From an uncultured Clostridia bacterium (GTDB taxonomy: Bacteria > Bacillota > Clostridia > TANB77 > CAG-465): a DNA stretch of 33,057 nt. A model generated the notes under the pieces. That model ran no database searches and was not told the origin of the DNA. It saw nothing but the letters and a program-made list of their open reading frames with translations. Of the stretch, positions 5,666-13,009 are shown piece after piece. Location: NCBI GenBank assembly GCA_944388545.1, contig CALXJE010000017.1, forward strand, positions 1 to 33,057, in the 5' to 3' direction. The first letter of the stretch is position 1. Each line of letters starts with the position of its first letter. A program made the translations under genes and the position numbers.

Positions 5666-6277
5666 ATGAATAGAAAAGAATTTGTAAATTCTGATAATAG
5701 TTCATGTGGAAGTATAGGTAAATATGAATATATATCTAGTGGTATATACGAAGAGAAAAAATCAAAATTTTATTCATATATTTTTAGTATAAATAGCGAT
5801 AAAGAAGCAGTAGAAATATTATATGAAGTAAGAAAACAGTTTAAAGATGCAAGACATGTTGTTTATGCTTATGTGTTAGATAAAATATATAATTATTCTG
5901 ATGATGGAGAACCATCAGGTAGTGCCGGGAAAATTATATATTCGCTACTAGAAAAGCAAAATGTTATCAATACATTAGTTATTGTTATAAGATACTTTGG
6001 TGGTGTTTTACTTGGAGTAGGTCCTTTATCTAGGGCTTACTTAAAGGCAGTAAAAAATGCAGAAGAAAAACTACATATAGTAGATTATATTTCTAAAACA
6101 GTACTAGAAATTGAGTTTGGATATAATGAAGAACCAGAAGTAAAAAGAATTATAGAAAGCAGTAAATCTGAAATTATAGATACAAAGTATAGTGAAAATA
6201 TTGTATATGTAGTTAAAGTACCTGAAAATGATATAAAATTATTTAATAGATATCAAAAAAGTAAAAAAATTATATAA
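5666..6277 (+). CDS. YigZ/IMPACT family protein (UPF0029)
   Basis: This 203-residue protein belongs to the YigZ/IMPACT family. The conserved core is visible: KSKFYSYIF, RHVVYAYVL, then SDDGEPSGSAGK, and VIRYFGGVLLGVGPLSRAY. Family members have a two-domain ferredoxin-like fold and are linked to ribosome or translation control, but the reaction is not established. About 20 residues precede the conserved core, so the first ATG at 5666 is reasonable. It lies four bases after the HtrA stop codon, with an AGGAGAAG site inside that gene's tail. No terminator is visible after it, so transcription may continue into the 22-codon frame and spo0A. Confidence 0.88.
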   Translation: MNRKEFVNSDNSSCGSIGKYEYISSGIYEEKKSKFYSYIFSINSDKEAVEILYEVRKQFKDARHVVYAYVLDKIYNYSDDGEPSGSAGKIIYSLLEKQNVINTLVIVIRYFGGVLLGVGPLSRAYLKAVKNAEEKLHIVDYISKTVLEIEFGYNEEPEVKRIIESSKSEIIDTKYSENIVYVVKVPENDIKLFNRYQKSKKII

Positions 6278-6300
6278 ATTATGTAATAAAAGGAGATACT

Positions 6301-6369
6301 ATGAAAGTATTTCCTTTTTTAGACAAAAGTCGATGGAAAAAATTAACAAAAAGACTTGAAAAAGCATGA
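6301..6369 (+). CDS. Possible 22-residue basic peptide upstream of spo0A
   Basis: A complete short frame starts with ATG seven bases after a near-perfect AAAGGAGA site (about 6288-6295). It reads [20 protein letters not shown] followed by two more residues and TGA. The peptide has eight basic and two acidic residues (net about +6), with hydrophobic residues spaced as in an amphipathic helix. It sits between the yigZ-type gene and spo0A, about 50 bases before the spo0A start. Codon use resembles the neighbours. It may be a real microprotein, a leader peptide that couples translation to spo0A, or chance. No homologue is recognised. The main support is the strong ribosome binding site, which no other gene can use. 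Confidence 0.4.
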
Positions 6370-6418
6370 AATAGAATGTATAATAACCATATCGTTTGGA
6401 AAAAATTGGGAGGTAAAT

Positions 6419-7234
6419 ATGAACGACAAGTTAAAAATCATGGTAGTTGATGACAATAAAGAGTTTGTAAAAATATTAACTACATTTATAAATGGTGAGC
6501 AAGATATGGAGGTTGTGTGTAGCTCATTTGATGGATTAAATGCGATTAATTTAGTAAAAGAGCATAATCCTGATGTAATTCTTCTTGATATTATTATGCC
6601 AGAAAAAGATGGACTAGCGGTGTTAGAAGAGGTGCGTGAAAAGATAGATACTAAACCGTTAGTAATTATGATGTCAGCAATAGGACAAGAAAAAATAACA
6701 CAAAAGGCAGTATCTTTGGGAGCAACATATTATGTTGTAAAACCATTTGATCTAACAACTTTAACTGATAGGATAAGAGAATTAGTAGGAAATACAAGTA
6801 ATTCTATATTTGAAAGAGCAAAAGGAGAATATGTATTTAAACCTCAAAACAATACTAAAAAAATGGCACCTATAGAAGTTAGAGTAACAAATTTAATTCA
6901 CGACGTAGGAGTTCCAGCACATATAAAAGGATATCAGTATTTAAGAGAGGCAATTATAATGTCTGTAGAAAATGAAGAAGTAATAAATGCAGTTACAAAG
7001 ACGTTATATCCAACACTTGCTAAATCATTTAAAACGACACCATCAAGAGTAGAAAGAGCAATAAGACATGCTATAGAAGTAGCGTGGAATAGAGGTCAAA
7101 TTGAAGTTCATGATAAAATATTCGGATACACAGTAAATTCAAATAAAGGTAAACCTACAAATTCTGAGTTTATAGCAATGCTTGCAGATTTACTTAGAAT
7201 GGAAACAGTAGTTGCAGAAGAAGCGGTAATATAA
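6419..7234 (+). CDS. spo0A: Spo0A, master regulator of sporulation
   Basis: This is a 271-residue response regulator. The receiver domain has acidic residues D11 and D12, phospho-acceptor D57 in [13 protein letters not shown]86 and K108 in VVKPFD. A linker leads to the Spo0A DNA-binding domain, marked by [20 protein letters not shown] near the C-terminus. Phosphorylated Spo0A starts sporulation by activating and repressing transition-state genes. I chose the ATG at 6419 because GGGAGGT (6408-6414) precedes it and the protein then starts like other Spo0A proteins ([12 protein letters not shown]). An in-frame ATG at 6356 would add 21 unrelated residues and has no good ribosome site. A hairpin terminator follows at 7267. 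Confidence 0.97.
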
Positions 7235-9620: not shown

Positions 9621-9643
9621 AGAGAGCAAAATAGCTCTCTTTT
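9621..9643 (+). terminator. spoIIID terminator; left breakpoint of tandem duplication
   Basis: AGAGAGC (9621-9627) pairs with GCTCTCT (9634-9640) and is followed by TTTT. The loop holds the aaaatag sequence at which the downstream tandem duplication begins. A half-copy of this terminator reappears at 11550. Confidence 0.75.
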
Positions 9644-9674
9644 ATGTTTAGGGCTTCCAATTTTATGTAAAGTA

Positions 9675-9683
9675 TGATATAAT
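9675..9683 (+). promoter_or_regulatory. Extended -10 promoter of repeat-protein gene 1
   Basis: TG-A-TATAAT (9675-9683) is an extended -10 element preceded by a poor -35. The same sequence, with the flanking TATGTAAAG and TTATATAG, occurs in front of the second gene. It lies about 55 bases before the start codon. Confidence 0.55.
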
Positions 9684-9738
9684 TATATAGTATTAAATAG
9701 GAATATCCTAGAAATAATTTGAAAGGAAAGTGAATTTA

Positions 9739-11409
9739 ATGATGGAATTTATGCTAGGCGAGCGGGAATATGCAATAGAAGTATATAAAGAAGTGTTGCT
9801 AGGAAGTAGAAAAAAATTTCCTAATTATTTCTGGTCTGATTTTTATGGATTAGAACATGCAAAATACGTTGTTAGATACCTTATAGAAGAAAAACTAAAA
9901 TGGAGTGATGAACAAGTAAAAAAGAAGTTGAGTCATAATACATTTAAGCGGAATAAGCTTGGAGGAATGATAGCAATAATATTTAGTTCCAGTCCATTTG
10001 CGGCAATAGATAATGCATACCCAGAAAAATACAAAGAATGGGAACTTAGTCGTGTTCCAGTAGGCTTTTGGACATTAGAAAAAGCTAAAGAAGCAACAAG
10101 ATGGTTAATAGAAGAAAAGTTAAAGTGGAATGATGAGCAAGTAAAGGAAAATATGTGTAATGATATATTTGTAAAAAATAAATTTGGAGGAATGTTAAGT
10201 GTATTATTTAATGCTAGTTCATATGCAGCAATAGAAAATGCATATCCTGGAAAGTATAAAGCATGGGAGTTTAAAAATGTACCCAATAATTTTTGGAATT
10301 TGGAAACAGCTAAAGAAGCAACAAGATGGTTAATAGAAGAAAAATTAAAGTGGAGTGATGAGCAAGTTAAAAAAAGCTTGTGTAGGGCTATATTTAAACA
10401 AAATGATCTTGAAGGAATGCTACAAGTTGTATTTAATAGTAATTCATTTAGAGCAATAGAAAATGCATATCCTGGAAAATATAAAGAGTGGGAGTTTAAA
10501 GTTATTCTTGGCTCTAGAGCTTTATGGAATTTAGAAACAGCTAAGGAGGCAACAAAATGGCTAATAGAAGAAAAGTTAAAGTGGAATGATGAGCAAGTAA
10601 GAGATAATTTATGCTTAGATACTTTTAAAGAAAATGAACTAGGTGGAATGATAAGTGTTCTATTTAAAGGAAGTTCTTTCGGAGCAATAGAAAATGCATA
10701 TCCTGGAAAGTATAAAGCATGGGAATTTAAATTCACTCCTAGAAGTTTTTGGAATTTGGAAACAGCTAAGGAGGCAACAAAATGGCTAATAGAAGAAAAA
10801 CTAAAATGGAGTGATGAGCAAGTAAGAGATAATTTGTGCTTAGCTACTTTTAAAGAAAATGGATTAGGTGGAATGATAATCGACTTATTTAATGCTAGTT
10901 CATATGCAGCAATAGAAAATGCATATCCTGGAAAGTATAAAGCATGGGAATTTAAATTTACTCCTAAAAATTTTTGGAATTTGGAAACAGCTAAGGAGGC
11001 AACAAAATGGCTAATAGAAGAAAAGTTAAAGTGGAATGATGAGCAAGTAAGAAAAAATATTAAACAAATTGTATTTATACAAAATGGACTTTCAGGCATG
11101 TTAACTAAAGTATTTAACGGTAGTATATTTGCAGCAATAGAAAATGCATATCCTGGAAAGTATAAGCCGTGGGAGTTTAAATCTACTCCTAGAAATTTTT
11201 GGAATTTAGAAACAGCTAAAGAGGCAACAAAATGGCTAATAGAAGAAAAACTAAAATGGAGTGATGAGCAAGTACGGGAAAATTTTACTAGCGAAATATT
11301 TGTCCAAAATAGACTTTGTGGAATGTTAAGAGTTTTATTTAAAGGAAGTTCTTTTGCAGCATTAGAAAACGCCTATCCTGGAAAGTATTCTAGTAAATAT
11401 AAGAAATGA
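9739..11409 (+). CDS. 75-residue-repeat protein 1 (seven repeats)
   Basis: This 556-residue protein is almost entirely tandem repeats. A diverged first unit (residues 1 to about 109) is followed by six units starting at bases 10066, 10291, 10522, 10747, 10972 and 11197. Each is 75 residues long except one of 77. A unit reads FWNLETAKEATKWLIEEKLK, then W(S/N)DEQV, a variable stretch, a GGM(L/I)-type turn, (S/A)(S)xFAAIENAYPGKY and K.WEFK. Each unit is predicted to be helical, with Trp, Glu and Lys strongly conserved. No signal peptide, membrane segment or catalytic motif is visible, so it is probably cytosolic and binds DNA, RNA or protein through an array. It may correspond to a Pfam DUF family such as DUF4046, but I cannot check this. 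I chose the ATG at 9739 for its spacing from GAAAGGA; a GTG at 9730 is too close. Confidence 0.85.
   Translation: MMEFMLGEREYAIEVYKEVLLGSRKKFPNYFWSDFYGLEHAKYVVRYLIEEKLKWSDEQVKKKLSHNTFKRNKLGGMIAIIFSSSPFAAIDNAYPEKYKEWELSRVPVGFWTLEKAKEATRWLIEEKLKWNDEQVKENMCNDIFVKNKFGGMLSVLFNASSYAAIENAYPGKYKAWEFKNVPNNFWNLETAKEATRWLIEEKLKWSDEQVKKSLCRAIFKQNDLEGMLQVVFNSNSFRAIENAYPGKYKEWEFKVILGSRALWNLETAKEATKWLIEEKLKWNDEQVRDNLCLDTFKENELGGMISVLFKGSSFGAIENAYPGKYKAWEFKFTPRSFWNLETAKEATKWLIEEKLKWSDEQVRDNLCLATFKENGLGGMIIDLFNASSYAAIENAYPGKYKAWEFKFTPKNFWNLETAKEATKWLIEEKLKWNDEQVRKNIKQIVFIQNGLSGMLTKVFNGSIFAAIENAYPGKYKPWEFKSTPRNFWNLETAKEATKWLIEEKLKWSDEQVRENFTSEIFVQNRLCGMLRVLFKGSSFAALENAYPGKYSSKYKK
10066..11396 (+). repeat. Six in-frame 225-base repeats in repeat-protein gene 1
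   Basis: Units begin at 10066, 10291, 10522, 10747, 10972 and 11197 with spacing of 225, 231, 225, 225 and 225 bases. The third to sixth units share nearly identical DNA (for example AGGCAACAAAATGGCTAATA), which points to recent expansion or gene conversion. The first two units use a slightly different version. Confidence 0.9.
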
Positions 11410-11417
11410 AATGTTTT

Positions 11418-11455
11418 AAGAACTAGTAATTTAAAAATTACTGGTTCTTTATTTT
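11418..11455 (+). terminator. Terminator of repeat-protein gene 1
   Basis: AAGAACTAGTAATTT (11418-11432) pairs with AAATTACTGGTTCTT (11435-11449), with one G-U pair, and is followed by TATTTT. An equivalent hairpin follows gene 2 at 12881. Confidence 0.75.
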
Positions 11456-11596
11456 AATAATAATATTGTAAAAGCAAGTTAATATTATATAAATGACAAA
11501 GTAAAATTATAATTTTTATAATTAAAATTGAAATAAGTATAAATAATGAAAAATAGCTCTCTTTTATGTTTAGGGCTTTTATTTTTATGTAAAGTA

Positions 11597-11605
11597 TGAT
11601 ATAAT
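11597..11605 (+). promoter_or_regulatory. Extended -10 promoter of repeat-protein gene 2
   Basis: TG-A-TATAAT (11597-11605) is identical in sequence and distance to the element before gene 1. The -35 region is one of the few places where the two upstream regions differ. Confidence 0.55.
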
Positions 11606-11660
11606 TATATAGTATTAAATAGGAATATCCTAAAAATAATTTGAAAGGAAAGTGAAATTA

Positions 11661-12872
11661 ATGTTACATATGATGTTAGATGAGCGGGAGTATGCAATAG
11701 AAACATATAAAGAGGTACTGTCAAGGAGCCGTAAAAAATTTCCAGATTTTTTTTGGTCGGCACCTATGGGATTAATCCATGCAAGGGATTTAGTTAGATA
11801 TCTTATAGAAGAAAGGCTAAAATGGGATGATAAGCAGGTAAAAGAAAAATGGTGTATAAAGACGCTTGTACAAAATCGTCTTGGAGGAATGTTGGTTAAA
11901 ATGTTTAATGGTAGTGCATTTGCAGCTATAGAAAATGCATATCCTGGAAAGTATAAAGTATGGGAAATGAAAGTTGCTACTAACGCTTTTTGGGATTTAG
12001 AAACTGGCAAAGAAGCAACAAAATGGTTAATAGAGGAAAAGCTAAGGTGGAGTGATGATCAAGTAAAAGACAATATATGTAAAGAAATATTTATAAAAAA
12101 TGGACTGCAAGGTATGCTAATAGATGTATTTAAGAATAATTATTTTATAGCAATAGAAAATGCATATCCAGGTAAGTATAAAAAATGGGAATTTAGAAAC
12201 GTTTGTAATAATTTCTGGACATTAGAAACTGCTAAGGAAGCGACAAAGTGGTTAATAGAAGAAAAGCTAAAGTGGAGTGATGAGCAGGTAAAGGAGAGCT
12301 TAACGCAGGCAACATTTATACAAAATGGCCTTTTTGGAATGTTAAATAGAGTGTTTAAAGGTAGTCCATTTGCAGCTATAGAAAATGCGTATCCAGGGAA
12401 ATACAAGAAATGGGAATTTAAAGTCCCTAGTGGATTTTGGAATTTGGATACCGCCAAGGAAGCAACAAAATGGTTAATAGAAGAAAAACTAAAGTGGAGT
12501 GATGACCAAGTAAAACGAAATTTGTGTCAATCAATATTTGTCCAAAATGATCTTTCAGGAATGTTAAGTGGTGTATTCAAAGATAGCTCTTTTGCAGCTA
12601 TAGAAAATGCATATCCGGGTAAATATAAAGTTTGGGAATTTACGAGAGTTCCTAAGGGCTTTTGGACATTAGAAACTGCCAAGGAAGCAACAAAATGGTT
12701 GATAGAGGAGAAACTAAAATGGAACGATTGTCAAGTAAGACAAAATTTGGACGTAGCTACATTTAGGAAGAACAGACTTGGTGGAATGTTAAATGATTTA
12801 TTTAATAACAGTATATTTAAAGCTTTAGAAAATGCATATCCAGGTAAGTATTCCCGTAAAAATAGGAAATGA
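11661..12872 (+). CDS. 75-residue-repeat protein 2 (five repeats)
   Basis: This 403-residue paralogue of the preceding gene has a diverged head unit and four standard units starting at bases 11988, 12213, 12435 and 12660. It keeps the same motifs: KEATKWLIEEKL(K/R)W, (S/N)DxQV, and FxAIENAYPGKYK.WEF. The final unit ends in ALENAYPGKYSRKNRK, as in protein 1, so both proteins close with a basic tail. Its repeats resemble one another in DNA (AAGGAAGCAACAAAATGGTT) more than they resemble those of gene 1, which suggests repeats are homogenised within each gene. ATG at 11661 is the counterpart of the start chosen in gene 1. The head region differs clearly from gene 1, in contrast to the almost unchanged upstream DNA. 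The function is unknown. Confidence 0.85.
   Translation: MLHMMLDEREYAIETYKEVLSRSRKKFPDFFWSAPMGLIHARDLVRYLIEERLKWDDKQVKEKWCIKTLVQNRLGGMLVKMFNGSAFAAIENAYPGKYKVWEMKVATNAFWDLETGKEATKWLIEEKLRWSDDQVKDNICKEIFIKNGLQGMLIDVFKNNYFIAIENAYPGKYKKWEFRNVCNNFWTLETAKEATKWLIEEKLKWSDEQVKESLTQATFIQNGLFGMLNRVFKGSPFAAIENAYPGKYKKWEFKVPSGFWNLDTAKEATKWLIEEKLKWSDDQVKRNLCQSIFVQNDLSGMLSGVFKDSSFAAIENAYPGKYKVWEFTRVPKGFWTLETAKEATKWLIEEKLKWNDCQVRQNLDVATFRKNRLGGMLNDLFNNSIFKALENAYPGKYSRKNRK
11988..12860 (+). repeat. Four in-frame repeats of about 225 bases in repeat-protein gene 2
   Basis: Units start at 11988, 12213, 12435 and 12660 with spacing of 225, 222 and 225 bases. Indels are multiples of three and fall in the linker after WEFK, which is also where gene 1 varies. 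Confidence 0.88.
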
Positions 12873-12880
12873 AATGTTTT

Positions 12881-12918
12881 AAGAACTAGTAATTTAAAAA
12901 TTACTGGTTCTTTGTTTT
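12881..12918 (+). terminator. Terminator of repeat-protein gene 2
   Basis: The stem AAGAACTAGTAATTT (12881-12895) with AAATTACTGGTTCTT (12898-12912) is the same as after gene 1, followed by TTTGTTTT. Confidence 0.75.
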
Positions 12919-13009
12919 GGTAGAAATTTAAATAAAATTATAATTTTTATAATAAAAATTGAAATAAGTATAAATAATGAAAAATAGTATAAAATATTTA
13001 TGTGATATG

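What the first reader, a model, noticed from the sequence alone, without database searches (positions are those of the whole stretch)
9628..12987. Tandem duplicated genes for 75-residue-repeat proteins inside the spoIIID-mbl neighbourhood
spoIIID and mbl are usually close together in spore formers. Here 3.4 kb separates them, holding two genes whose products are arrays of seven and five repeats with a shared core (KEATKWLIEEKLKW, SDEQV, FAAIENAYPGKYK.WEF). They have no membrane, secretion or catalytic motifs. Strong conservation of Trp, Glu and Tyr-Pro-Gly-Lys within each unit suggests a folded, repeated helical module that binds a repetitive partner. Sitting in a sporulation/cell-shape block, with own promoters and terminators, they are the best candidate here for an undescribed system. 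Link to sporulation is inference.
Basis: partly seen in the sequence, partly recalled or inferred. Interest (0 to 1): 0.8.

Follow-up and report, generated by a model that had tools for sequence, protein, structure and literature searches.

The report
Two stacked helical-repeat binding proteins
Two neighbouring genes encode soluble proteins made of seven and five copies of a little-known helical building block that also occurs in archaea, fused to a pilus motor in other bacteria, and beside spore-germination genes in Bacillus relatives, so it is probably a modular binding scaffold of unknown partner, not a part of the spoIIID-mbl locus as such.

Summary
In detail: genes at 9739-11409 and 11661-12872 encode a short N-terminal cap plus 7 and 5 units of about 75 residues, each gene with its own promoter and terminator. 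The unit is not wholly unknown: cap plus first unit is the uncharacterised Pfam family DUF4046 (borderline in the window, clear in homologues). The unit as a repeat is not modelled in Pfam, has no solved relative found, and its confidently predicted five-helix fold (pLDDT 94.5) gave no match. The link to the locus fails: in 19 of 27 relatives spoIIID and mbl are at most 110 bp apart, in others unrelated genes fill the gap, and homologues lie at scattered loci. A different spore link appeared: relatives sit directly beside ger (germinant-receptor) operons in three branches of the family tree, including gerU on pBM700. Others carry four units on a PilB-type ATPase (Riflebacteria) or an N-terminal HTH (Woesearchaeota). 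Window units have a frozen framework (dN/dS about 0.1) and a faster-changing patch (about 0.5). Best reading: a soluble alpha-solenoid binding array with a variable face; partner unknown; a modular DNA reader is the main rival.

The parts
9663..9683 (+). promoter of gene 1: TTATGTAA element (9663-9670) and extended -10 TGATATAAT (9675-9683)
   Evidence: sequence; TTATGTAA in 16 of 34 upstream regions of family genes against 13 of 219 other upstream regions (not corrected for orthologues)
9698..9710 (.). inverted repeat TAGGA-N3-TCCTA in the 5' leader of gene 1; occurs only three times in the genome, each at a copy of this gene
9739..11409 (+). gene 1, 556 aa, pI 9.0: N-cap plus seven units
9739..9828 (+). 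N-terminal cap (EVYKEVLLGSRKKFPNY), with unit 1 the DUF4046-like part
9829..10065 (+). unit 1 of gene 1
10066..10290 (+). unit 2 of gene 1
10291..10521 (+). unit 3 of gene 1
10522..10746 (+). unit 4 of gene 1
10747..10971 (+). unit 5 of gene 1
10972..11196 (+). unit 6 of gene 1
11197..11406 (+). unit 7 of gene 1 (lacks the last Trp)
11418..11449 (+). intrinsic terminator of gene 1
11585..11605 (+). promoter of gene 2, near-identical to that of gene 1
11620..11632 (.). inverted repeat TAGGA-N3-TCCTA in the leader of gene 2
11661..12872 (+). gene 2, 403 aa, pI 9.3: N-cap plus five units
11751..11987 (+). unit 1 of gene 2
11988..12212 (+). unit 2 of gene 2
12213..12434 (+). unit 3 of gene 2 (modelled alone)
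12435..12659 (+). unit 4 of gene 2
12660..12869 (+). unit 5 of gene 2 (lacks the last Trp)
12881..12912 (+). intrinsic terminator of gene 2

Best explanation
Each protein is a soluble cytoplasmic alpha-solenoid: an N-terminal cap followed by stacked five-helix units. Helix 1 and the helix 5/AYPGKYKxWEF loop are the constant framework that stacks unit on unit; the short helices 2-4 carry a variable face (chiefly unit positions 22-27, 33, 35, 39-40, 44, 46, 48) that binds a macromolecular partner, most likely protein or peptide. The genes are stand-alone cassettes (promoter, gene, terminator) that spread and duplicate locally, and arrays lengthen or shorten by unit; the spoIIID-mbl gap is simply where this lineage's cassette landed and was duplicated. 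Shown: array structure, selection pattern, stand-alone units, scattered loci, domain fusions. Predicted: the fold. Inferred: that the variable face binds, and that the partner is protein.
For: Confident model of cap plus three units, pLDDT 94.5, pTM 0.83, and of one unit alone, pLDDT 91.9. Framework dN/dS 0.05-0.12 against about 0.5 in the H2-H4 patch, although synonymous sites are near saturation everywhere; positions that vary within the window arrays also tend to vary within other arrays (Spearman 0.64; single arrays weaker, Riflebacteria not significant), which partly reflects core against surface. Units occur as 1, 2, 3, 4, 5 and 7 copies and as parts of larger proteins: C-terminal to MshEN+T2SSE (PilB/GspE type) ATPases in Riflebacteria and after an HTH_11 domain in Woesearchaeota, as expected of a general binding module. 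Scattered monocistronic contexts in the window's family.
Against: No partner is known. The variable patch may be only relaxed surface: dN/dS stays below 1. No fold match means no analogy to a known binding solenoid. HTH fusion and basic pI (9.0, 9.3) would also fit nucleic-acid binding.
Confidence: 0.5

Rival explanations
1. Modular DNA (or RNA) reader: the short helices of each unit touch bases and the array is a local transcription regulator, perhaps autoregulated through the leader inverted repeat and acting on neighbours such as ger operons.
For: Basic proteins; N-terminal HTH_11 in Woesearchaeota homologues; TAGGA-N3-TCCTA occurs only at the three copies of this gene type in the genome, arms intact although the spacer of the decayed copy changed; TTATGTAA enriched in promoters of family genes; position beside or divergent from ger operons is typical of local regulators.
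Against: No profile similarity to the HNH_repeat DNA-binding repeat (hhalign 0.3%) nor to any HTH family for the unit; fusion to a pilus ATPase is hard to square with DNA reading; the leader repeat may be shared only by descent; no conserved basic residues in the variable patch.
Confidence: 0.25
2. Spore-germination accessory in all spore formers that have it, the window genome included.
For: Adjacent to ger operons in Priestia (dozens of plasmids and several chromosomes), Domibacillus, Neobacillus, Paenibacillus oralis, three Alicyclobacillus loci and one member of the window's own family; three separate branches of the tree; two different Priestia ger operons (GerA about 40% identical) each have their own paralogue.
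Against: The window's only GerA gene is on contig C29, away from these genes, and the window copies are not in a ger-linked branch. Homologues occur in archaea and Riflebacteria, and in Clostridium, Paenibacillus cremeus, Pontibacillus and Aneurinibacillus loci without a detected ger neighbour. One carrier, G018, had no SpoIIID match. A pBM700-cured strain regained glucose germination with a plasmid described as carrying gerU genes plus regulatory sequences (PMC4366231, PMC12772218), so the neighbouring homologue is probably not essential for the receptor.
Confidence: 0.2
3. A fast-evolving accessory cassette of the conflict type (between strains, or phage-host), whose variable array is swapped by recombination in conserved flanks.
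For: Leader 96% identical between the copies while coding DNA drops to 50-87% from the start codon on, dS about 1.2 in unit 1; decayed copy on C33; patchy occurrence, plasmids and two viral contigs.
Against: No PADLOC match for the unit, no toxin, nuclease or immunity partner, no defence-island context seen; framework under strong purifying selection.
Confidence: 0.05

Closest known systems
Pfam PF13255, DUF4046
   Same: N-cap (VYxxVLxGxxKRFPxxFW) and first unit align over the model; paralogue on C30 scores 40.7 bits against a cut-off of 22.8
   Different: The model covers only cap plus about one unit; window gene 1 is borderline (19.8-23.0 bits), gene 2 below; tandem units are not modelled; the family has no described function, and no paper in the library names it
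ger-linked homologue BMQ_RS27195 on Priestia megaterium pBM700
   Same: Same cap and unit architecture, three units
   Different: Lies 0.5 kb upstream of gerUA; belongs to another branch of the family
HNH_repeat (PF18780), homing-endonuclease associated repeat
   Same: Short tandem helical units with an F-x-S...A pattern (by eye)
   Different: No profile similarity; units 50 against 75 residues
Alpha-solenoid repeat scaffolds (TPR, HEAT, ARM) and modular readers (TALE, PUF)
   Same: Works like them in principle: constant framework, variable face, stackable units
   Different: Five-helix unit; no sequence or fold match

Membership tests
DUF4046 (PF13255) | profile score over the curated cut-off, 22.8 bits | tested here: inconclusive
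   Gene 1: 19.8 bits by hmmscan, 23.0 bits in the genome search; gene 2: 11.4 bits; close homologues and the C30 paralogue clearly over
DUF4046 (PF13255) | cap plus first unit in order at the N-terminus | tested here: met
   Alignment A1, matched residues 13-75 of gene 1
spoIIID-mbl locus system | conserved presence between spoIIID and mbl | tested here: not met
   19 of 27 genomes with both genes close have at most 110 bp between them; the rest have other content
ger-operon accessory | gene directly beside a ger operon | tested here: not met
   For the window: the genome's only GerA is on C29. Met for Bacilli relatives and G006
HNH_repeat (PF18780) | profile similarity to the repeat | tested here: not met
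   hhalign probability 0.3%; no Pfam hit among 74 units
TPR/HEAT/ARM-type solenoids | sequence profile of the repeat | tested here: not met
   No repeat family over its cut-off; a 0.32 E-value ARM_LIN_2nd hit on gene 1 is below cut-off
TPR/HEAT/ARM-type solenoids | same fold of the unit | tested here: inconclusive
   Foldseek E above 1 for all; best VIA Z 3.9 to one YqeY domain
Modular nucleic-acid readers (TALE-like) | constant framework with a few variable positions per unit | tested here: met
   this feature is shared with protein-binding repeats
Modular nucleic-acid readers (TALE-like) | sequence-specific nucleic-acid binding | not testable with these tools
   needs EMSA, SELEX or ChIP

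The most novel reading that the evidence does not exclude
The unit is a new class of modular recognition repeat in which each unit's variable patch (about ten positions) reads one element of a repetitive target, used by different lineages to steer germinant-receptor operons, a pilus motor and archaeal regulators; unit number and patch would form a readable code.
Probability: 0.1. Interest if true: 0.9.

Novelty: new variant of a known kind. Interest (0 to 1): 0.58.

Why it matters
An uncharacterised Pfam family turns out to be a true repeat module with a confidently predicted fold that found no match, present in archaea, Bacillota, Riflebacteria and viral contigs, and attached to a pilus ATPase in one phylum. 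Its repeated, apparently separate association with germinant-receptor operons gives a concrete, cheap handle: one gene next to the well-studied gerU operon of Priestia megaterium can be deleted. If the variable face binds a defined partner, the arrays could serve as designable binders.

Tried and rejected
Known-family explanation by Pfam, NCBIfam, PHROGs, PADLOC and PDB sequence: only DUF4046 is consistent; the weak hits (MPS-4, SpaA, arsC_related, phrog_4888 tail chaperone at 4e-7 with no single stretch passing) touch 25-40 residues, recur once per repeat unit, and are not credible. Fold search: best is one YqeY domain, Z 3.9 over 53 residues, in a list of helical noise; not used. HNH_repeat by profile comparison: rejected. 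Shared neighbours in the Clostridia (metK, mbl, SpoIID-domain genes): two independent cases each, about what chance gives, not used. TTATGTNA as a promoter motif: confounded by the extended -10 TGTTATAAT, only TTATGTAA kept as a lead. One alignment was too divergent for a collection scan. Literature: no paper names DUF4046, and none found describes the gene beside gerU; subscription papers could not be searched.
Full report
Observation. Between spoIIID (ends 9620) and mbl (from about 12977) lie two genes on the + strand. Gene 1 (9739-11409) encodes 556 residues, gene 2 (11661-12872) 403; both start with a cap of about 30 residues followed by seven and five units. Each has a leader with an extended -10 element and a strong intrinsic terminator. 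Upstream lie spo0A, spoIID, an M23 peptidase gene and spoIIID.

Family. The cap plus first unit matches DUF4046 (PF13255): 19.8 bits by hmmscan and 23.0 in the genome search for gene 1, 40.7 for the C30 paralogue, against a cut-off of 22.8. Scanned singly, 74 units gave only weak DUF4046 matches in 7, so the repeat itself is not modelled. No solved relative was found by sequence, and the library of open papers never mentions DUF4046.

Distribution. 26 of 56 relatives (57 genomes with the window's own) have a match. By the DUF4046 model the family is rare in the phylum sample (3 of 398 genomes including the window's), though that model misses many members. A pattern scan of species genomes gave 34 loci: gut Clostridia, Clostridium, Paenibacillus, Priestia, Domibacillus, Neobacillus, Alicyclobacillus, Riflebacteria, candidate division TA06, Methanophagales, Heimdallarchaeota, Woesearchaeota, plus two viral contigs and 55 plasmids.

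The locus is not the point. In 27 genomes of the family with both genes close together, spoIIID and mbl are at most 110 bp apart in 19; in the other eight the gap is larger and holds different things: a phosphorylase-family gene in the sister genome G001, a 606-residue pseudopilin-like protein in G003, an AAA-type ATPase in G032, no sizeable gene in G022 and G033 (counted by hand from the coordinates). G001 has no homologue. Homologues elsewhere stand alone between housekeeping genes such as lepA, typA or metK (annotation by eye).

A spore link from elsewhere. tblastn with Ger proteins found ger operons directly beside the homologue in Priestia, Domibacillus, Neobacillus, Paenibacillus oralis and Alicyclobacillus, and in G006 of the window's own family, where the preceding gene is a spore permease (PF03845) 76 bp away. 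On pBM700 of Priestia megaterium QM B1551 the homologue lies 0.5 kb upstream of gerUA; on another plasmid a paralogue is divergent from a different ger operon. These genomes hold 7-31 GerA matches in 3.7-8.1 Mb, so chance adjacency within about 2 kb is of the order of one to two per cent per locus (my estimate). On a tree the ger-linked proteins need three changes of the label, and starred branches force three: the link arose or was kept in at least three places, or was lost twice. The window copies are outside these branches, and their genome's only GerA gene is on contig C29. Homologues of Clostridium, Paenibacillus cremeus, Pontibacillus, Aneurinibacillus and the non-spore-forming lineages have no detected ger neighbour. 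In P. megaterium strains that had lost pBM700, a plasmid described as carrying the gerU genes plus regulatory sequences restored glucose germination (PMC4366231, PMC12772218), so the neighbouring homologue is probably not an essential receptor part; paralogues elsewhere could mask a role.

Domain fusions. In Riflebacteria four units follow MshEN and T2SSE domains (E 1.5e-17 and 6.7e-130) and precede an unassigned C-terminal domain; two Woesearchaeota proteins begin with HTH_11 (one over, one just under its cut-off); a Methanophagales protein has five units and an unassigned C-terminal domain.

Structure and selection. AlphaFold2 on 43 sequences gave cap plus three units at pLDDT 94.5, pTM 0.83, each unit five helices; one unit alone pLDDT 91.9. 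Neither Foldseek nor the second aligner found a convincing match; by the tools' own caution this does not prove a new fold. Among the twelve window units pooled dN/dS is 0.11 in helix 1, 0.51 in helices 2-4, 0.12 in helix 5 and the YPG loop. Eight residues occur at position 39 and nine at position 26, while L8, I9, E10, E11, W15, D17, Q19, V20, Y54 and P55 never change. Variation within other arrays falls at similar positions. This is the pattern of a stacking framework with a variable face; relaxed surface constraint is not excluded.

Cassette history. Leaders of the two genes are 95.6% identical over 114 bp, including half of the spoIIID terminator, so the duplication happened in place. From the start codon on, identity falls to 50-87% per 30 bases, and unit 1 has dS about 1.2. 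The decayed copy on C33 shares the leader (90.5% over 95 bp) and terminator, not the spoIIID flank. Fast coding divergence between near-identical flanks points to exchange of array interiors or to gene conversion of the flanks; I cannot tell which. The inverted repeat TAGGA-N3-TCCTA occurs three times in the genome, only at these copies.

Mechanism and verdict. Shown: repeat array, selection pattern, scattered stand-alone cassettes, fusions, ger adjacency in relatives. Predicted: fold. Inferred: binding by the variable face. I file it as an expanded, divergent relative of DUF4046 acting as a soluble alpha-solenoid binding array (0.5), with a modular DNA reader (0.25) and a general spore-germination accessory (0.2) as rivals.

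Noticed in passing
9629-9739 and 11551-11661; 11418-11449 and 12881-12912: Leaders and terminators of the two copies are 96-100% identical while the coding DNA between them has saturated synonymous sites; the boundary is at the start codon. Array exchange or flank conversion is suspected.
   Followed up: partly
G000 contig C33:529-867 (L058): Decayed one-unit copy of the same gene with stop codons, sharing leader, inverted repeat and terminator.
   Followed up: partly
L131, L133, L135-L139 (Riflebacteria/Ozemobacteria): PilB/GspE-type ATPase with four of these units and an unassigned C-terminal domain, conserved across the phylum's genomes seen here.
   Followed up: partly
L115:4480-5106 (Methanophagales): C-terminal domain without Pfam match after five units; by eye perhaps nuclease-like, untested.
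   Followed up: no
L163 (NC_014023.1, pBM700) 6001-6753: Uncharacterised DUF4046-type gene directly upstream of the well-studied gerU operon.
   Followed up: partly
L140, L141 (IMG/VR contigs): Four-unit homologues on putative phage contigs of 74-90 kb, next to small ribbon-helix-helix-like proteins.
   Followed up: no
G001:C106 13784-14897 (L044), G003:C8 (L045), G007:C34 (L046), G032:C12 (L048): The spoIIID-mbl gap of this family collects unrelated single genes, as if it were a favoured insertion place.
   Followed up: partly
promoters of family genes, e.g. 9663-9670 and 11585-11592: TTATGTAA between -35 and -10 is enriched upstream of these genes at unrelated loci.
   Followed up: partly
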